Positions 14,885 to 23,894 of a DNA stretch of 64,000 nt are shown here, one piece after another. Each line of letters opens with the position of its first letter. The first letter of the stretch is position 1. The notes beneath the pieces were generated by a model. The model had not been told where the DNA came from. It did not search any database and saw only the letters and a program-made list of their open reading frames with translations. Both the position numbers and the translations under genes were made by a program. This DNA is from Leisingera aquimarina DSM 24565. Lineage in GTDB: Bacteria > Pseudomonadota > Alphaproteobacteria > Rhodobacterales > Rhodobacteraceae. Location: the NCBI RefSeq assembly GCF_000473165.1, contig NZ_KI421504.1, positions 3,324,094-3,388,093 of the forward strand. The letters run 5' to 3'.

Positions 14885-15880
14885 TCACGCAGCCGCGCGG
14901 TCCGCCATCTGCGCCAGCGCCTGCTCCACCAGTTCCGGCCCGGCCCCGGCGCGGCAGGCCCCCTCGGACAGCATCCGCCGCCATTGCCGCGCGCCGGGGC
15001 GGCCGGCAAACAGACCCAGCATATGCCGGGTGATCTGGTTCAACTTGGCGCCATCGGAAAGCCGAGCCTCGATGTAGGGCAGCATCTGCCGCACCGCCTC
15101 AGCAGGATCGCTCACAGAACCCGTCCCGTAGATCTCCGGATCAGCACCGCAGAGTACCTCGGCCGGCTGGTGATAGGCTGCACGCCCCACCATCACCCCG
15201 TCCAGACCGCGGTCCAGATGCAGCTTGGCTTCGGTCAGCGTGGCGATGCCGCCGTTGATCGAGATATGCAGATCCGGAAAGGCAGCCTTCATCTGGTGCA
15301 CTAACTCGTAGTCGAGCGGAGGAATGTCCCGGTTTTCTTTCGGACTCAGCCCCTGCAGCCAGGCCTTGCGGGCATGGATCGTCACCCGCCGGCAACCCGC
15401 CGCGCGGATCTTGTCCAGAAAGTCCGGCAGCACCTCTTGCGGCTCCTGCTCATCAATGCCGATACGGCATTTGACCGTGACCTCGGCCTTCACGGCCTCA
15501 CGCATGGCTGCAACGCAGTCCGCCACCAGCTCCGGCGTCTGCATCAGAACCGCGCCAAAGGCGCCGGATTGCACGCGGTCACTGGGGCAGCCGCAGTTGA
15601 GGTTGATCTCGTCATAGCCTGCATCAGATCCCAGCTTTGCAGCCTCTGCCAGCTCAACCGGGTCAGAGCCGCCCAGTTGCAAGGCCACCGGATGTTCGTC
15701 GTTGTGAAAGTCGAGCAAGTGCAACGCTCCGCCCCGCACCAGCGCAGGCGCGGTCACCATTTCGGTGTACAGCAGCGTCTCCCGGCTCAAGAGCCGGTGC
15801 AGATACCGGCAATCGGACGTCGTCCAATCCATCATGGGTGCCACGCTTAAACGCGCCGCTTTTTGTGCGTTATTTTTCAA
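14885..15880 (-). CDS. dusA: tRNA-dihydrouridine synthase A with island-supplied N-terminus
   Basis: The FMN enzyme reduces U20/U20a in tRNA. Motifs include S-V-A-P-M-M-D-W near the N-terminus, the catalytic-Cys motif N-L-N-C-G-C-P-S, H-A-R-K-A-W-L-Q-G-L, and G-V-M-V-G-R-A near residue 225. The C-terminal R-H-M-L-G-L-F motif is present. The best start is TTG at 15880 (K-N-N-A-Q-K-A-A-R-L-S-V), giving 331 residues; an ATG at 15997 would add 39 basic residues. The first codons lie inside the integrated island. The original host start, encoding M-T-D-F-A-P-L-H-Q-A-A-R-L-S-V, is stranded at 23823. The enzyme is thus a hybrid, complete in sequence and probably functional, now read from an island promoter. 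Confidence 0.93.
   Translation of the reverse strand: MKNNAQKAARLSVAPMMDWTTSDCRYLHRLLSRETLLYTEMVTAPALVRGGALHLLDFHNDEHPVALQLGGSDPVELAEAAKLGSDAGYDEINLNCGCPSDRVQSGAFGAVLMQTPELVADCVAAMREAVKAEVTVKCRIGIDEQEPQEVLPDFLDKIRAAGCRRVTIHARKAWLQGLSPKENRDIPPLDYELVHQMKAAFPDLHISINGGIATLTEAKLHLDRGLDGVMVGRAAYHQPAEVLCGADPEIYGTGSVSDPAEAVRQMLPYIEARLSDGAKLNQITRHMLGLFAGRPGARQWRRMLSEGACRAGAGPELVEQALAQMADRAAA
15826..15838. other. attL of the dusA island
   Basis: Core AATCCATCATGGG encodes the M-M-D segment of DusA on the minus strand. It is identical to 23763-23775, and partial identity continues for about 25 bp on the island/host side. It marks the left junction. Confidence 0.82.
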
Positions 15881-16157
15881 AGCTTTAACCCCATTTAGCT
15901 TCAAACTTCGCGTAGCACGATTTCCCCTGATTTCACCGTTTTTCCGGGGATTTTCGGAGGTTCTCGATTCGAGCGTGCTACGGTGTAGCACATCCATAGC
16001 CTACAAACAGCGGCCCAAATGCAGCTGGTTCCTGGCCCGGGCACCGCCGGTTCCATCTTCCGTGCTTCTCTCGGAATTTGGCTATCAAACCCCGGAATCT
16101 TTTTTCGTGCGGCCGAACCGAATTCCCTATCATCGAAATCAAGATGGGACGAATTCC

Positions 16158-17420
16158 ATGACCACTATCAACAAAAGCACAACGGATGTGCTCGCAGCGA
16201 TTACTGCCCAGAACCTCTTCCAGCGCTCTCCTTCTCAAGCAACCGCTGTGGCTGCTGCCGGGGTTTCAGAAAGCACCATGCCGGTCTCGTCGACCGAGCA
16301 GAAAGAAAAGAAACCTCGCAAGGAGATCCCAGGGAAAAAATTCGAGGAACAGAACATCACTCGGTTTGAAGGCAAGAATGGAAAGTTCTCCTACCGGGTA
16401 CAAATCCGAAAGCGTGTGGATGGCAAACAGCACAGCCTCACGAAAACCTTCAAGCACCTGCCAAACGCAAAAAAATGGCGAAACAACCAACTCCGCGACA
16501 TCGAGCTAAACGGGTTTCCAATTCAAATCGTGACGGAAACTACAATCTCAGATGTCATCGACGATCGTTTGAAGCGCGGGAAAACCCTTGGCCGATCTGC
16601 CCTTCAAGTGCTGACGTTCATCAAGGCCGACGAGTTCGGAAAGACCAGGGTATCAACGCTGACCCAGCAACAACTATACGACTATGCGGATCTATTGTCG
16701 GCTGGTGAAAGAATGCCACAGACTGTCGCGGGATACATGACTCACCTGGCGAGGACACTCTCCTGGGCCAAGGACCGAGGTGCCTTGATTCCGATCGAAG
16801 TGGTCAGTCTGGCCATGCGAACTCTTTGGGAAGATGAAGTTCTGGCTCGATCCGAAGAGCGAGATCGCCGACCAGAACTCTGTGAGCTAAACAAAATCCT
16901 GACTGCTATCTCGGAAAATCCTCGGCAGAAGATCCCCGCCGACATCCTGGCGGTCTTTGCAATCTATTCGGCGCGTCGTCTGAGCGAAATCTGCAGACTG
17001 AGGTGGGATGATCTGCGCGTGAATAGTGGCACAATCCTCGTGCGCGATATGAAACATCCCAGGCAAAAAAAGGGAAACAACGTTTGGTGCACTCTTCCGA
17101 GCGAAGCATTGGAGATTATCCTGGCAATGCCCAGGACGTCTGAGTTCATCTTCCCTTACAATCCGCGCTCGGTTGGGACGGCATACCGCCGCCACCGGGA
17201 CAAGGTCGGAGTCGTCGATCTGCGCTTCCATGACTTTCGGCACGAAGCCATCAGTCGGCTTTTCGAGATGGGAAAGTCTGCTTCATTCGTCAGAAAGATC
17301 TCAGGTCACAAGAATGGTGGATGCCTTTACCGCTACGAACACGTCGAAGAAGAAGGCGACAAATTCGCCAACTGGGACTGGCATCAACTGACCCTGGAGA
17401 AATGCAAGTCACTTCACTGA
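16158..17420 (+). CDS. int: DusA-type tyrosine recombinase (integrase)
   Basis: The start is the ATG at 16158, after GATGGGACGAATTCC; the same frame is open back to 15765 across dusA but that part is antisense. The protein has 420 residues. The N-terminal third is a charged arm- and core-binding region (K-K-P-R-K-E-I-P-G-K). Catalytic residues are R274 (S-A-R-R-L-S-E-I), H358 and R361 in H-D-F-R-H, H384 in S-G-H-K, and the nucleophile Y393 in Y-R-Y-E-H. The position beside the 5' end of dusA, pointing away, is the known arrangement of integrases that use dusA as target. It is expected to recombine the 15826 and 23763 sites. Confidence 0.92.
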   Translation: MTTINKSTTDVLAAITAQNLFQRSPSQATAVAAAGVSESTMPVSSTEQKEKKPRKEIPGKKFEEQNITRFEGKNGKFSYRVQIRKRVDGKQHSLTKTFKHLPNAKKWRNNQLRDIELNGFPIQIVTETTISDVIDDRLKRGKTLGRSALQVLTFIKADEFGKTRVSTLTQQQLYDYADLLSAGERMPQTVAGYMTHLARTLSWAKDRGALIPIEVVSLAMRTLWEDEVLARSEERDRRPELCELNKILTAISENPRQKIPADILAVFAIYSARRLSEICRLRWDDLRVNSGTILVRDMKHPRQKKGNNVWCTLPSEALEIILAMPRTSEFIFPYNPRSVGTAYRRHRDKVGVVDLRFHDFRHEAISRLFEMGKSASFVRKISGHKNGGCLYRYEHVEEEGDKFANWDWHQLTLEKCKSLH

Positions 17421-17529
17421 TAACCCCGATGGCCGGGTTCCTTGCATCGGCCATCAAACTCCTATCAAACCAGTTTTCCGCCATTTGAAGCAGAAACGCA
17501 TTTCCTCTCCACAAGCAAAGGAGACAAAG

Positions 17530-17814
17530 ATGAAAACCATCGACATGCTGCTCGCCCATTTCGGCGGAAATCCGATTATCCCGCTGGAACACGTAGCGCA
17601 GTATTTGAACTACAAGCCGGATACGCTGAAGCAAAAAATCGACGGCGGCGACATCCGCTTGCCCTACACTGGAGTTGAGAACAACAGCCAGAAGGCTCAG
17701 AAATTCATACAGCTCACGGATCTTGCTCGACTGATTGACGTTCAGTTCACAGCTGCGCAGGAGAAATTCGCTTCTATCTGGGAAGACGCCGCGTTCGACG
17801 CAAGCGCCCGTTGA
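17530..17814 (+). CDS. PrtN-like (pyocin activator family) protein, possible excisionase
   Basis: This 94-residue protein starts after an AAGGAGACAAAG ribosome site, 109 bp behind the integrase. Its pattern M-L-L-A-H-F-G-G-N-P-I-I-P-L-E-H-V, Y-L-N-Y-K-P-D-T-L-K-Q-K-I, G-G-D-I-R-L-P and L-T-D-L-A-R-L-I-D is that of PrtN-family winged-helix proteins. PrtN activates pyocin genes in Pseudomonas. No pyocin genes are present here, so in this setting a recombination directionality factor or regulator of the integrase is more likely. That role is inference from the neighbour and size. Confidence 0.75.
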   Translation: MKTIDMLLAHFGGNPIIPLEHVAQYLNYKPDTLKQKIDGGDIRLPYTGVENNSQKAQKFIQLTDLARLIDVQFTAAQEKFASIWEDAAFDASAR

Positions 17815-18063
17815 ACCCGACCTGACGGCGCCTTGAAGAATGCCTCTATGAGCAGGCGGAAGAAGGGGTTTTAATCGGACGAAGAAGAGCACGAGAGTTG
17901 AGCGCAGGCAACGACGCCGGGGATTTCAGTGGCACTGGTGGCGCAGCGATATGCGGTCAATGCGAACCCCATTTTCGAATGGTTGAAGGATCCTCACTTT
18001 CTCCGTCATGAGATGCGCCGTCCCAATTTCAGCTTGCTGAGAAGGGGGCGGTGTCCGATCACA

Positions 18064-18315
18064 TCAAGTCGACTTTATGTCAGTATTATAAAGGAGTTCG
18101 ACTTTCATTTCGCTCTCACGTTCATTGTTGAATAGAGTCCAGCGCTGACCATTGAGGATACTTCCATCGTCGCAAATATTCTTTGTTGATGTCGGCGTGG
18201 AATTTGGATGCAATACGATCCAGAGCACACCAAAAGCCGCGTCTCGCTTGCCATGCTCAAGACCATGCGTGTCCAAAATTCTGCTAATTTCGGAAATCAG
18301 CGCTCTATCATCCAT
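18064..18315 (-). CDS. Small hypothetical protein of the island
   Basis: The 83-residue frame starts M-D-D-R-A-L-I-S-E-I and is preceded on the minus strand by GGAGAGAGATGAGCA, a plausible ribosome site. The product is mixed polar with no signal peptide or membrane segment and contains one Cys. Residues 1-32 look helical, with a later W-T-L-F-N-N-E-R-E-S-E-M-K-V-E-L-L strand-like tail. I recognise no family. It lies alone between the PrtN-like gene and the end of hsdR. Confidence 0.5.
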   Translation of the reverse strand: MDDRALISEISRILDTHGLEHGKRDAAFGVLWIVLHPNSTPTSTKNICDDGSILNGQRWTLFNNERESEMKVELLYNTDIKST

Positions 18316-18496
18316 TGCTCATCTCTCTCCATTAAACACACGCAAACTATACCACCATGAAAATTCTGGGGAATGAGATTTGCACCGGCACGCGTTGGCT
18401 GGGTTTACAGAGCGCTCACCGCTCGACTGAACAAGCTGATACAGTTCAAGAGGCACCACACGACTTTGGGGCCTCTTTCTTTGCTCAACGTGTCGC

Positions 18497-21400
18497 TCAA
18501 TGCAACTCGACTGCCAGGGCTTCGGCTTGACGAAGAACGGTCTTCACAGCCTCAGATGCAAGATCAGGTGGGTATCCATGCCGCTGAAGAATTTTCTTCA
18601 CTGCAATGCGCATCCTCGCTCGCACATTATCCCGGCGCCACCAATCCGTACCTGAATTCTTTCGTACCGTATTCACCAGTTCCGCGGCTATTACACGCAA
18701 CTTATCATTGTCCATGATCTCAACCGCGCTGTCATTTTGTGACAGGGCATCATAAAATGCGCGTTCTTCCGCAGACAGACCGTCGTCAGGTTGATCCCGA
18801 AGGTCCTTCGCAATTTCGATCAGTTCCTGAAGGATCTGAAGGGCGTCGACACTTCTATTGTGATATTTGGCAATCGCTTGCTCCAGGCGAGAGGAAAACT
18901 CCTCTTTCTGAACGATATTCGTTCTGGTCTTCGCAGAGATCTCACCGTTGAGAAGCTTCTTGAGAGCTTCCACCGCCAGGTTCTTGTACTTCATATTTTG
19001 GATTTCGATCATGAAGGCATCAGACAGAACGCTGATATCAGGACGATCGAAGCCGCAAGCTTCAAGGATATCAACAACTTCTGTAGACGCAACTGCACGA
19101 TTCACAAGCTGCTGAATTGCGAAATCCGGATTCCGGGATGACCGCCCAACCGGCGCCGCCCCAACCTTTTCCAGGCCTGATCTGACGGCAGAGAAAAAGG
19201 CTACTTCTTCCGTGTGGTCGGTGGCTTGAGGACTGCCTGACGCGAGTTTGAAGGCCTTTACCAGGGCCGCAGTGGCATCGTTGAAGCGCTTTACTGCCCC
19301 GCCTTCACCCAGTCTCTCCCTTTGCAAAATGTGATCGAGAGCACTCGGTAGTACGCGAAGCCGTTCCGCAGGCGTCCCTCCCAAGGCTTGAGAATAGTCA
19401 AACCCATGGAACTGGGTGCGCGCCACGTCAAGCGCATCCAGGAAAGCCGCGACGGCCTCGGCTTCACTGATCCCTGTCTGTTGCTGGTCGGACTGACTGT
19501 AGTGGGCAAGCGCACTTTTCAATTCCGCAGCGATACCAATGTAATCAACGACCAGCCCTGCAGGTTTGTCCTGAAATACACGGTTCACCCGGGCGATAGC
19601 TTGCATAAGGCCATGCCCTCGCATCGGCTTGTCGACATAAAGTGTATGCATGCAGGGTGCATCAAATCCGGTCAACCACATGTCACGGACGATGACGAGC
19701 CTCAACGGATCCGCTGGATCCTTTGTGCGGTTCCTGATCGCTTCCTGGCGGGACTTCGAGCGAATATGGGGCCGAAACTCTGCAGGATCTGTTGCGCTGC
19801 CAGTCATGATGACTTTGACCTGACCAGTTTCGTCAGTATCCCCATGCCATTCAGGCCTCAGTTCCACGATCCTATTGTACACTTCAACGCATATGCGTCG
19901 GCTCATGCACACAATCATCGCCTTGCCGTCCATCGCCTCAAGCCGCGCGTCGAAATGCTCCAGGATATCTTCGACCACCGTATCCAGGCGCTTGTTGGCT
20001 CCAACCAGTGCTTCGACACGCGACCATTTTCGAGCGATCGCCGCCGCCTCGTTTTCTTCCATTACTTCGGTGGCTTCGTCGAATTTCTCGTCGAGTTCCC
20101 TGGAAAACTCCTCGTCCAGCTCGACCTTGGCAACTCGTGCTTCATAGTAGATTGGAACCGTCGCTCCATCCTCGACGGCTTGGGCGATGTCATACACGTC
20201 GATATATTCTCCAAATACACCCCTTGTGTTAGCTCCGACCAACTCAACAGGAGTTCCTGTGAAGGCGATGTAAACAGCATTGGGGAGCGCCTGGCGAAGT
20301 TGGTATGCAAGGCCATGACGGACTTCCCCTGTCTCCTTTTTCATCTTTGCCTCGAACCCATATTGAGTGCGGTGCGCCTCATCGACCATGACGATCACGT
20401 TGGACCGGTCCGTCAGTTCTGGGAAAACTTCACCTGTTTCCGGACGGAATTTCTGTATCGTGGAAAAGACAACACCACCCACTTCACGATTAAGTAGGTC
20501 TTTCAGGTCACTGATGCTGTCGGCCTGGACTGGATCTTCGCCAAACAAATCCCTGCACCGACCGAAGGTCGCAAAAAGCTGATTATCCAGATCATTGCGG
20601 TCAGTCAGAACAACCAGGGTCGGGTTTTCAAGGCCAGGATGCCGCATAACGCGTCCGGCAAGGAAGGTCATCAGCAGAGATTTGCCAGACCCTTGTGTGT
20701 GCCAGATGACACCGCCTTTGCCATCTCCTCCCTGAGCCGCCAGAATCGTCTGGATGGCCTTCCGTACGGCATGGAATTGATGGTAGCCGGCGATTTTCTT
20801 GACCGGTCCTCTACCCTCATCCTCAAACACTACAAACCAGCGCATCAGGTCCAGAAGCGTCTGTGGATCCAAAAGCCCTTGGGTCAGAGTTTGGAGGGCA
20901 AGAGACGTATTTTCTTCGACTATGGTTTCGCCGTCGATGGTACGCCATCGCATGAAACGATCCAGTCCGGCCGACAACGAGCCATAGCGGGCATTCAGCC
21001 CATCTGAAATCACGGTAAGAAGCGATGTGCGAAACAGATCAGGGATATCTTCTTTGTATGTGTCGATCTGCCGATAGGCGGCGTCAATTCCGGCCCCTTC
21101 CGTCCCCTTCAGCTCAACAACGACCAGTGGCAGGCCGTTCAGGAATAGTACCACATCCGGTATCCGAGGATTCTTTCCGACCACATCCACCTGATTGACG
21201 GCACGCCAGTCATTCTTCTGGTTTTCCCAATCGACAATCTGAACACGCGCATTGCGTTCTTCACCATCGGCGAAATAGGTCAGAGCCACACCATTGACGA
21301 GAAGGTCATGCAGACGCCGGTTTTCCTGGACAACGTCAGTGGCGTACACGACATCATGTACCCGCGTCGCGGCCTCCTGGACCGCAGTGACCGGCAGCTC

Positions 21401-21562
21401 AGGGTTCAGTCGTTTCAGCGCACCGAAGAACACCGGCAAAAGAAAGGTCTCCCGGAAGCTCGTTCGCATCGGATTGCGCATTTCAGGCGAAATTTCAGAA
21501 CCGTGGTGGACGGAGTACCCCAGCGCCCCAAGGTCTTCCATGAAGACAGCTTCAAGGGGCAT
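18497..21562 (-). CDS. hsdR: Type I restriction HsdR-like protein, 5' end altered by IS
   Basis: Read from an ATG at 21562 that lies inside the IS terminal repeat, the product has 1021 residues. It contains the nuclease motif D136...E150-L-K152 (I-P-D-V-V-L and V-V-V-E-L-K), Walker A G-S-G-K-S at 291-295, a D-E-A-H box in [10 protein letters not shown], helicase motif [12 protein letters not shown], and the C-terminal coupling helices. HsdR cuts DNA during translocation and needs HsdM and HsdS. Neither is in the window, so restriction activity is unlikely unless they are supplied elsewhere. Compared with relatives, only about 5-15 N-terminal residues seem lost. Expression would depend on IS-derived sequence. 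Confidence 0.88.
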
Positions 21563-22610
21563 TGTTGCAGAACTCCCTCTTGTGGCCTGACTACCCCTTT
21601 CCCCTCCGAACTTAGGCGACGCGGATGATCTCGGCGGCGCCGAGTGCGTTGAAGCGGTTGATGAGTGCGATGCGGATGTGGATTTCGGCGGTTTGGCGGT
21701 CGGGGTCTCTTGCGGCAATGCGCTCGCCGAATGCCTTTAAGCAGCGCATCTTTGCCTCGATCCGGCTCCGGACGTGGTATCCTGTCCAGCGCTTCCAGAA
21801 GGCTCGACCGTAGTGTCGGGTGGCTCGCAGAGTTTCGTTTCTGACCTGCGCAGCCGGACAATCTTCTTTCCACAACCGACCATTCTTGCGGATCGGGATG
21901 ATCGGGGCCGCGTCGCGTTCGAGGATCGCGGCATGGCAGCGTCGCGTGTCATAGGCGCCATCGGCGATCACGGTGCCGATGTCTTCGTCCTCGGGGAACT
22001 GACCCAACAAGTCCGGTAAGACCGGGCTGTCGCCGTCGCGGCTGGGGGTGAATTCGACGGCACGGATGTCAGACGTGGCAGCATCCATCGCAAGATGAAC
22101 CTTGCGCCATTGGCGCCGCCCCTGAACGCCGTGCTTGCGGGCCTGCCACTCACCATTGCCAAGGAACTTGATCCCGGTGCTGTCCACAAGCAGGTTCAGC
22201 GGCCCGTCGGCGCGGCGATATGGGATCTGGACGGCCAGCGTTTTCTGTCGGCGGCACAGCGTAGAGAAATCCGGAACGGGCCAGTCCAGACCCGCCAGGT
22301 GCAGAAGGCTGGTGACCATCCCGACGGTCTGCCGGAGGGGCAGCTTGAACAGAACCTTGATCGACAGGCAGAACTGGATCGCCGCATCCGAGAAAACCGC
22401 AGGGCGACCGGGGCTGTCATCATGCGGAGCGAGCCAGGTCATCTCTTTGTCCAACCAGATCAGAAGCGACCCGCGCTTTCTGAGCGCATCGTTGTAGCTG
22501 GACCAATTCGTCGTACGGTAGCGGGCTGGTGTGGGCTTGCTCATCTGCCCCGTCTAACCGCATGGATTCGTGATGTGAATCCTTAGCACTCAGAGTTCTG
22601 CAACAACGCC
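21558..22610. mobile_element. IS5-family (IS903-like) insertion sequence, 1053 bp
   Basis: Terminal inverted repeats are GGCATTGTTGCAGAACTC at 21558-21575 and, on the other strand ending at 22610, GGCGTTGTTGCAGAACTC: 17 of 18 bases match. One intact transposase gene fills it. The flanks (CTTCAAGG before, CAACAGAGG after) show no target duplication, which suggests a deletion after insertion. Both neighbouring genes are cut at the IS ends. Confidence 0.9.
21612..22544 (-). CDS. tnp: IS5-family transposase
   Basis: The intact 310-residue DDE transposase begins M-S-K-P-T-P-A-R-Y. Likely catalytic Asp residues are in L-L-V-D-S-T-G-I-K and V-I-A-D-G-A-Y-D-T, and the Glu is in V-R-S-R-I-E-A-K-M, the Y-x2-R-x3-E-x6-K-like signature of IS5 relatives. 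The N-terminal [14 protein letters not shown] is typical of the IS903 subgroup. With intact terminal repeats and frame, the element may still be mobile. Confidence 0.92.
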
Positions 22611-23529
22611 CAACAGAGGCCTGCTCGTCGGTCAAAAGGGGATGCCCACCTGGTTTCGCGCTCCACCCAATGGATGCGTCGATAAGTTTGTCGCTGTCGA
22701 CCAGTAAGAAGGACGTCTTGACCTGGTCATTCCCCTCAGCATCCTTGGTGAGTGCCGTGAAATGCGCGACCTTGTAGTGTGACCTATTCCCAGGAACGCC
22801 CATCATCCCTGCCAGCCGGGTTATCAATGTGTCGGTGGTCTCATCTGCAGGAATGAGAATTTGGAGCAATCTGATCTCGCCCTCACTGGAAATCAGTCGC
22901 GTTCCCAGATCAGACAATCTTAAATCAATGAATCCATCATCATGATTGTCAGCCTCATCACTGTAGAGATGCTCTTGTAGGGCCTTCAGATCAAAACTTT
23001 CGCTGACATCTCCATCAGTTTCCCCCAGACGAAGATAGTCGAGGAATTTGTGATTTTTTCCTGCGGTGACCCCAATGGGTTGGCTTGCCATCATCTCTCG
23101 AAGATCTTCGTAGTCCTCGGGCACATAGAGGTGGCGCGTCGCCGGCCAGGGAGTGAGCCCTGGGAGTTTTCCGACAGGATGTGGTCTGAGGAACGGACGC
23201 ATTGCTTCAATACCAGGAAAGGTTCCTGGAAGTTTAAGTTCCATCAGAGCCAATTCGGCAAGGCAGTTGAGCGTGTCGTCAAATATGGTTTCCACCTGGT
23301 TGGCCAACAATGCGCTACTGACTTTCATCCATCGCCGAACAATCTGATCAAGACTTGAATCCGGGCCCTTCTTGAAAATGTCGACATGCCCCAGCTTGTG
23401 AATGCGGAGGAGAAAAGGAGGAATCCTTTCACCCGAAGAAGGTCCAAAGTTGGTTAAAGGCGATCGAGAATTTGCCAATGTAGTCTTTCTTTGAAATCGT
23501 CTTGATATGGATCTTTGGGATGTTTCCAT
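22611..23529 (-). pseudogene. Unknown island gene truncated by the IS
   Basis: The frame encodes about 305 residues of unrecognised protein and runs into the IS at 22610 (D-E-Q-A-S-V-G, then IS-encoded residues to a stop at 22420), so the C-terminus is lost. Visible features: a helical W-M-K-V-S-S-A-L-L-A-N-Q-V-E-T-I-F-D-D segment, a Pro-rich turn, then an acidic region S-D-E-A-D-N-H-D-D-G-F. No nucleotide-binding or nuclease motif is seen. The first 40-odd codons look unnatural (Arg/Ser-rich). An overlapping frame starting M-S-L-I-G-V-L-P-I-P at about 23594 reads more naturally and stops at 23429, so a frameshift near 23430 is possible. It is co-oriented with hsdR and may once have belonged to the same defence operon. 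Confidence 0.6.
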
Positions 23530-23762
23530 AGGTTGCCCCCGGACAAAAGGGACATTCCGCGACCGGGATCGGCAAAACGCCAATCAACGACATATGGTTT
23601 TGGCTCGGCGCCCTCGCTTGTCGAAGAACCAAGAATGCGGCATCATCAAACACGTGAAGCACGGCTTCACCATCAGGTAGGGACGATTGCTACATATGTG
23701 CTACACGCCGAAATCACCCCCTAAAAACAACTACAAAACAATACCTTACCTTCAGTCGCACA

Positions 23763-23775
23763 AATCCATCATGGG
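23763..23775. other. attR of the dusA island
   Basis: AATCCATCATGGG is an exact copy of 15826-15838. It is directly followed by the host-side remnant of dusA, defining the right junction. Confidence 0.82.
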
Positions 23776-23823
23776 CCCCACAGAAAGGCGCGCGGCCTGG
23801 TGCAAGGGGGCGAAATCAGTCAT
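23763..23823 (-). pseudogene. Stranded native 5' end of dusA
   Basis: On the minus strand, an ATG at 23823 opens M-T-D-F-A-P-L-H-Q-A-A-R-L-S-V-G-P-M-M-D and then runs into island DNA. It matches residues K-A-A-R-L-S-V-A-P-M-M-D of the intact dusA 8 kb away and is the original N-terminus displaced by integration. It lies 71 bp after the dctM stop, so the host dusA promoter was probably in or after the TRAP operon. Confidence 0.85.
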
Positions 23824-23894
23824 GCCGCGCCATATAGGTCCTGCGCCGCCGCCTGCCAGGCCGATCCGCTTTGGTGAGACATGAGTGCCCTTCT

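What the first reader, a model, noticed from the sequence alone, without database searches (positions are those of the whole stretch)
15826..23823. Genomic island in dusA that swaps the gene's N-terminus and strands the original
A 13-bp direct repeat (AATCCATCATGGG) bounds 7.95 kb. Next to the right copy is a stranded dusA start encoding M-T-D-F-A-P-L-H-Q-A-A-R-L-S-V-G-P-M-M-D. The intact gene now reads K-N-N-A-Q-K-A-A-R-L-S-V-A-P-M-M-D, apparently from a TTG codon on island DNA. Integration at dusA by a dedicated tyrosine recombinase family is established. Having both old and new 5' ends visible lets excision be predicted exactly. dusA is now under an island promoter with a weak start, so tRNA dihydrouridylation may depend on the island.
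Basis: partly seen in the sequence, partly recalled or inferred. Interest (0 to 1): 0.72.

Follow-up and report, generated by a model that had tools for sequence, protein, structure and literature searches.

The report
Mobile island that restarts host gene
A small mobile DNA island sits inside a housekeeping gene for tRNA modification and supplies that gene with a new beginning; comparison with relatives suggests that such borrowed beginnings can stay after the island has decayed, and it looks as if laboratory E. coli carries one.

Summary
A 7.9-kb island lies in the 5' end of dusA in a Leisingera genome, bounded by 13-bp repeats. The original start is stranded beside dctM; dusA now starts at a TTG on island DNA. 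Eight of eight island-free congeners have the stranded version joined to dusA. It is a new member of a known kind: dusA-associated integrase islands (PMC4482086, PMC8409611).

New to my knowledge is the aftermath. Of 21 Leisingera genomes, 13 have a borrowed dusA start. In six of these no intact integrase lies beside it, and in eight the original start is decayed or gone, so excision could not bring it back. In some, islands are stacked, each stranding the previous start. In E. coli the K-12-type start (4258 of 5426 genomes) looks like such a relic: homology to the other allele (1117 genomes) breaks at the attachment core, and a relative of the K-12 start sits beside an intact integrase in another genus. 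The relic reading is inference; no excision or expression was measured.

The parts
14885..15880 (-). dusA as now expressed: body from the host, first 14 codons before the core from the island, TTG start at 15880-15878
   Evidence: (PRK11815, TIGR00742 DusA)
15826..15838 (.). near attachment core (minus strand CCCATGATGGATT), junction of island 5' end and dusA body
15839..16157 (.). island end between dusA core and integrase start: replacement dusA 5' end, and inferred promoters for dusA (-) and int (+)
   Evidence: Alignment of 16 related ends; sigma-70 scan negative
15912..15990 (.). three GTAGCA/TGCTAC sites (15912, 15976, 15985), inferred integrase arm-type or directionality-factor sites
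   Evidence: same offsets from the core in G000, G010, G019, L058; in G007 too, one site two bases off
16158..17420 (+). tyrosine recombinase (integrase), 420 aa; RHRHY-type residues visible
   Evidence: PF00589 E 2.6e-20; sequence
17485..17814 (+). PrtN/RdfN-type recombination directionality factor candidate
   Evidence: PF11112 E 3.9e-15
18497..21556 (-). hsdR remnant (type I restriction subunit) that has lost its first ~8 codons to the IS
   Evidence: homology to related islands stops at 21557; intact hsdR in L053 starts with ATG at 15425
21557..22611 (-). IS5-family insertion (transposase 21612-22544), 19-nt inverted repeats, no target duplication seen
   Evidence: NF033579 E 4.1e-111; inverted repeats; flanks
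22612..23583 (-). cargo ORF without family match, 3' end cut off by the IS
   Evidence: read on into the IS; without it; Pfam, PADLOC and NCBIfam negative
23688..23704 (.). two GTAGCA/TGCTAC sites at the far end (+58 and +69 from the core)
23763..23775 (.). far attachment core
23763..23823 (-). stranded original dusA 5' end, MTDFAPLHQAARLSVGPMMD
23831..23859 (-). stranded original dusA promoter (inferred; CTGGCA-17-TATATG, 7 nt before ATG); native alleles read TTGGCA-17-TATATG

Best explanation
This is a small, probably still excisable member of the dusA-associated integrase islands. Its tyrosine recombinase joined the island's attachment site to the P-M-M-D codons of dusA. The island carries, just outside its core, a ready-made replacement for the first codons of dusA with its own ribosome site and a TTG start, so the gene keeps an open frame while the original promoter and start are pushed 7.9 kb away. 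The PrtN/RdfN homologue would favour excision, which would rejoin the original start. Over time the stranded original is no longer selected and decays, while the island-borne start is kept. After that, excision could not bring the original start back, and the borrowed start stays even when the integrase and the rest of the island are lost. Shown here: the anatomy, the empty site in relatives, conservation of the borrowed codons, decay of stranded starts, borrowed starts without integrase, and stacks. Inferred: activity of Int and RdfN, the ribosome site and the island promoter, and that selection against excision fixes the swap.
For: Empty site in 8 of 8 island-free congeners. Integrase PF00589 and PrtN PF11112. 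Same type of 5' end beside 89-98% identical integrases in six other genomes, among them Ruegeria, Shimia, Tritonibacter and Leisingera SS27. The borrowed codons differ far less (0.053 per site) than the 60 nt upstream (0.255), with changes mainly at third positions (0.116 against 0.014 and 0.028). Of 13 swapped loci, 7 have an integrase alongside and 6 none intact. The original start is intact in 5 and decayed or gone in 8. Stacks of more than one borrowed start: G004, G001 and, in another genus, G093.
Against: No excision, expression or tRNA measurement. No sigma-70-like promoter found in the island end. Ungapped comparison inflates the upstream difference. Only one locus (G006) combines an open integrase frame with a decayed start at the far end of the same island. 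In G001 and G004, whose native start is decayed, the top island ends at an intact older borrowed start, so its excision would still leave dusA with a start. G013 and G017 seem to share one inversion and are not independent; the decayed starts of G001 and G004 also look shared, so the eight losses are at least five events. Decay could simply track age, without any selective lock.
Confidence: 0.9

Rival explanations
1. The swap is freely reversible and decay of the stranded start is only a clock, with no lock-in.
For: Window, G010, G011, G018 and G019 have intact stranded starts. In the stacks of G001 and G004 the top island still ends at an intact older start. Excision is reported for other members (PMC4482086).
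Against: A borrowed start persists without an intact integrase in 6 of 13, in G220 of another genus (none found in 19.9 kb upstream) and in E. coli K-12. G006 has an open integrase frame but a far-end start without ATG and with a stop in the core.
Confidence: 0.4
2. dusA in the window is translated from the ATG at 15997, so the island adds a 39-residue extension and not a TTG start.
For: Open frame 15997-14885.
Against: Related 5' ends have in-frame stops between that point and the TTG (G010, L063, L064), and the upstream stretch is not conserved.
Confidence: 0.05
3. For the E. coli extension: the K-12-type start is ancestral and the type of strain IMT5155 is the derived one.
For: The K-12 type is the more frequent in E. 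coli (4258 against 1117 genomes).
Against: Upstream DNA of the IMT5155 type exceeds the best of 100 shuffles in 19 of 30 other Enterobacteriaceae genera; the K-12 type does so strongly in 3, one of them beside an integrase, and narrowly in six more, among them L122 and L129, which also lie beside integrases.
Confidence: 0.1

Closest known systems
dusA-associated integrase (DAI) islands, Farrugia et al. 2015 (PMC4482086; abstract, section 10 parts 1 and 2, section 18, and passages seen)
   Same: Tyrosine recombinase next to the 5' end of dusA, semi-conserved direct repeats, island supplies a new dusA 5' end, PrtN homologue in 60 of 94 islands, type I restriction cargo in the Acinetobacter example.
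   Different: Here 7.9 kb with a decayed cargo. That survey searched by integrase, so it could not see starts left behind without one; in the main text 'tandem', 'pseudogene', 'degenerate' and 'lost' have 0 hits. Supplements were not seen.
IMEVchUSA3 and SGI1-like elements in dusA (PMC8409611; abstract passage, section 13 and passages seen)
   Same: [quoted passage not shown] RdfN (PF11112) needed for excision; one tandem pair in dusA reported (IEVpaBan1a and 1b).
   Different: Vibrio element mobilised by IncC plasmids. It treats E. coli K-12 dusA as the native allele; searches suggest that K-12's own start is island-derived.
SXT in prfC (mentioned in PMC8409611, passage seen)
   Same: Element in the 5' end of a gene supplies new promoter and N-terminus.
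   Different: Different gene and element.

Membership tests
dusA-associated integrase islands | Tyrosine recombinase with RHRH tetrad and Tyr | tested here: met
   PF00589 E 2.6e-20; R, HxxRH, GH and Y residues read by eye in the sequence; tetrad named in PMC4482086
dusA-associated integrase islands | Insertion in the 5' end of dusA at a conserved site | tested here: met
   Core over codons P-M-M-D; the E. coli junctions lie at the corresponding P-M-L-D codons
dusA-associated integrase islands | 21-bp semi-conserved attachment sequences at both ends | tested here: inconclusive
   13 bp exact; the published logo is a figure and was not available
dusA-associated integrase islands | Island replaces the 5' end and keeps the reading frame | tested here: met
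dusA-associated integrase islands | PrtN/RdfN homologue (60 of 94 islands in PMC4482086) | tested here: met
   PF11112 E 3.9e-15
dusA-associated integrase islands | Excision as a circle | not testable with these tools
   Needs DNA from cells
dusA-associated integrase islands | Integrase falls in the DAI clade next to Rci | not tested
   No tree with reference DAI or Rci proteins was built; identity to integrases of other Leisingera dusA islands is 98% (G019), 65% (G010) and 34-35% (G001, G004, G006, G018)
Type I restriction-modification system (cargo) | hsdM and hsdS beside hsdR | tested here: not met
   Between hsdR and the far core only the IS and one unassigned ORF; hsdM and hsdS present in the related L053 island

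The most novel reading that the evidence does not exclude
Islands act as a one-way ratchet on a core gene: they replace its promoter and first codons, the stranded originals rot, and the borrowed start outlives the island. By this reading the dusA start of E. coli K-12, and of about four fifths of complete E. coli genomes, is the relic of a lost dusA island, and dusA 5' ends form a readable stratigraphy of past integrations.
Probability: 0.7. Interest if true: 0.62.

Novelty: new member of a known kind. Interest (0 to 1): 0.5.

Why it matters
The island is ordinary for its kind, but the aftermath is not obvious. If the borrowed start persists after the island is lost, integrase-based surveys undercount past integrations, 'wild-type' alleles used as reference (E. 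coli K-12 dusA) may themselves be island products, and a mobile element can leave a lasting mark on expression of a core tRNA-modification gene. In the window's genus the native allele looks leaderless (TATATG seven bases before ATG; inference), while the island version has an SD-like stretch and TTG, so the mode of translation start may change too. All of this can be tested with existing genomes and simple reporter fusions.

Tried and rejected
Chance repeat: rejected on context, though the 13-mer alone is not significant.

Upstream ATG start at 15997: rejected by in-frame stops in relatives.

Residue change W-T-D-R-(H/N)-C to W-T-T-S-D-C just after the core as an island product: it marks a group of four congeners (G000, G006, G013, G017), and the searched codons gave a match in 1 of 394 genomes of a family sample, the own genome. 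It is not explained by either island end; left as an aside.

Island captures the host promoter for its cargo: far-end ORF orientation was mixed in the 6 genomes looked at, so dropped.

tRNA gene as target: none in the window. Sigma-70 promoter for dusA in the island end: none found.

Cargo ORF 22612-23583: no Pfam, PADLOC or NCBIfam match; no structure was predicted.

Arm-site motif: present in KNNAQ-type and G006 islands, absent in the G001, G004 and G018 ends looked at, so at most specific to a subfamily. It was picked after seeing the sequence.

Three 'locked' islands with open integrase frames (draft claim for G001, G004, G006): withdrawn for G001 and G004, whose top island ends at an intact older borrowed start; it stands for G006 only.

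Stacking as something unreported: withdrawn, PMC8409611 describes one tandem pair in dusA.

Literature: searches listed no paper that I could recognise as dealing with decayed stranded dusA starts or with the K-12 start as island-derived; only the PMC library of these tools was searched, two papers were opened (in parts), and no supplements were read.
Full report
1. Observation. The 13-bp repeat is exact at both places. The right copy ends a 20-codon frame MTDFAPLHQAARLSVGPMMD that begins 71 bp past dctM on the minus strand; the left copy lies in dusA. Joining the flanks gives an unbroken dusA. The window's genome has one dusA by close match; the only other hit, at 31% identity, is a distant paralogue. 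Of 21 genomes of the genus, 8 have an uninterrupted dctM-dusA junction with this same 5' end: G002, G003, G005, G008, G009, G014, G015, G020. The genus is Leisingera: contig G019:C1 has the length of a contig of Leisingera sp. SS27 that carries the same locus.

2. Anatomy. From the dusA side: replacement 5' end, integrase (PF00589), PrtN/RdfN homologue (PF11112), hsdR, an IS5-family element, an unassigned ORF, far core, stranded start. Homology to related islands stops at 21557, the edge of the IS. The IS has 19-nt inverted repeats and no target duplication. In L053 (Ruegeria denitrificans) hsdM, hsdS and a DUF4268 gene precede an hsdR that starts with ATG. The window island has therefore probably lost hsdM, hsdS and the first codons of hsdR, perhaps by an IS-linked deletion (inference).

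3. Start codon. Sixteen related 5' ends were aligned: window, G007, G010, G012, G019, L053, L055-L061, L063-L065 (L054 and L062, duplicates of G019 and the window, were left out; L061 and L065 come from one genome). TTG stands at the start position in 15; G007 has GTG one codon upstream. Stops shortly upstream in G010, L063 and L064 exclude longer starts there. The borrowed codons change mainly at third positions and much less than the 60 nt upstream, as protein-level selection would give. The set includes stranded copies (L064, L065), and the upstream comparison was ungapped. Native alleles share TTGGCA-17-TATATG with ATG 7 nt later in 8 of 8, which suggests a leaderless transcript (inference). 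The window's stranded copy has CTGGCA instead, and Gly for Ala before the core.

4. After the swap. Thirteen of 21 genomes have a borrowed start, of at least five sequence types. A related integrase lies beside it in 7 (G000, G001, G004, G006, G010, G018, G019) and not in 6 (G007, G011, G012, G013, G016, G017) by tblastn and phmmer. A PF00589 search of those six genomes found none next to dusA, apart from a 321-aa recombinase 6.7-8.2 kb away in G013 and G017; I take it for a core XerC/D-like gene (recalled, not tested) because the best hit is of that size in six of the seven genomes searched. G016 keeps integrase fragments. At the dctM side the original start is intact in 5 (G000, G010, G011, G018, G019) and decayed or lost in 8 (G001, G004, G006, G007, G012, G013, G016, G017). 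Examples are ATG to ATC plus a frameshift in G007, and no ATG with a stop in the core in G006; G001 and G017 still have the ATG but not the core. In G013 and G017 dusA and dctM lie about 460 and 495 kb apart in opposite orientation, consistent with a shared inversion through the island. A tree of dusA body and dctM (G012 by dusA only) suggests at least five independent losses. Outside the genus, 5 of 394 sampled genomes hold the KNNAQ-type start (the 5 include the window's own): the window's genome and G093 with an open integrase frame, G359 with a probably frameshifted one, G220 with none found in 19.9 kb upstream, and G347 where the start is itself stranded.

5. Stacks. A pattern for the R-L-S-x-x-P-M-(M/L)-D codons was run on the 21 genomes with the reversed pattern as control (0 matches in 21). 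It finds three 5' ends in G004, two in G000, G001, G010, G011, G018 and G019, one in 13 genomes, and none in G002, whose native core reads MID. In G004 two further stranded starts (MQTNQHARLSAAPMMD, MPLNAATEAARLSSAPMMD) lie between dusA and dctM. In G001 a start of the G006/G017 type is stranded under a different island. In both, excision of the top island would restore an older borrowed start, not the native one. G093, another genus, has two KNNAQ starts 37 kb apart. In a family sample 18 of 199 genomes have two such ends by my count of the table, 152 of 199 have any, and the reversed pattern gives 0. The match list was cut, and whether each pair marks an island was not checked. One tandem pair in dusA is already in print (PMC8409611).

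6. E. coli as an independent test. Of 5426 complete genomes, 5375 hold the dusA body, 4258 match the K-12-type 5' region (4253 over at least 80%) and 1117 the type of strain IMT5155. The two counts add up to the body count, but genome-by-genome overlap was not checked. The contiguous K-12 junction covers at least 80% of the query in 3600, so roughly 650 K-12-type genomes probably carry something between; one such stranded K-12 start was read. Homology between K-12 and IMT5155 stops 67 bp past zur and resumes in dusA at L095:3258, at the P-M-L-D codons; the stranded K-12 start diverges 16 bases further on, so both junctions fall in the same short core. Between lie yjbL, yjbM and a different start. 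A profile built from seven Leisingera integrases found none there. In 30 other Enterobacteriaceae genera (the best 30 loci of 65 matching genomes out of 119 searched), the 180 nt upstream of the core exceed the best of 100 shuffles against the IMT5155 type in 19 (L124 only just). Against the K-12 type three do so strongly (L114, L119, L127; scores 48.5-65.5) and six narrowly. In L119 that start lies beside an integrase of this family (E 1.2e-79); L122 and L129 also have integrases beside other starts; L114 and L127 have none in the 1.5 kb looked at. The simplest reading is that the K-12 start came with an island that has since been lost. The IMEVchUSA3 paper reports 61% identity over 35 residues and equal length between the element's N-terminus and that of K-12, which fits.

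7. What is known. Integration in dusA, the new 5' end, excision, and RdfN are published (PMC4482086: abstract, section 10 parts 1 and 2, section 18 and passages; PMC8409611: abstract passage, section 13 and passages). Tandem accretion of islands is a known idea (search listing only). I found no statement of stranded-start decay, integrase-free dusA scars or the K-12 case in searches, of which I saw listings and starts of abstracts.

8. Verdict. Added value: a testable view that borrowed starts outlast their islands. Steps shown: sequence anatomy, comparative counts. Steps inferred: recombinase activity, promoter, selection, and the K-12 history.

Noticed in passing
window 15806-15826 (-), dusA codons at and after the core: The motif WTDR(H/N)CR of DusA reads WTTSDCR in four related congeners (G000, G006, G013, G017), and its codons matched in no genome of another genus in a 394-genome family sample; it looks like a compensated frameshift next to the attachment core.
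   Followed up: partly
L042 13220-15025 (G011): A 1.8-kb mini-island without integrase, with both attachment cores and an intact stranded dusA start, carrying one ORF with a weak TIR-like match below the curated cut-off (PF10137 E 0.015; PADLOC TIR E 0.035).
   Followed up: partly
window 15912, 15976, 15985, 23688, 23699: Five of the nine GTAGCA/TGCTAC sites of the window lie in the two island ends, at offsets conserved in related islands; candidate integrase arm sites.
   Followed up: partly
G013 and G017 (L033, L035, L066, L070): dusA with an island-type start and dctM are about 460-495 kb apart in opposite orientation, as if an inversion had used the island as a breakpoint.
   Followed up: partly
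L063/L091 (G359): The integrase beside a KNNAQ-type start matches in two frames (break near residue 334), so it is probably frameshifted.
   Followed up: no
L095 1571-3258 (E. coli K-12): yjbL and yjbM occupy the replaced stretch between zur and dusA and may be cargo left over from a lost dusA island.
   Followed up: partly
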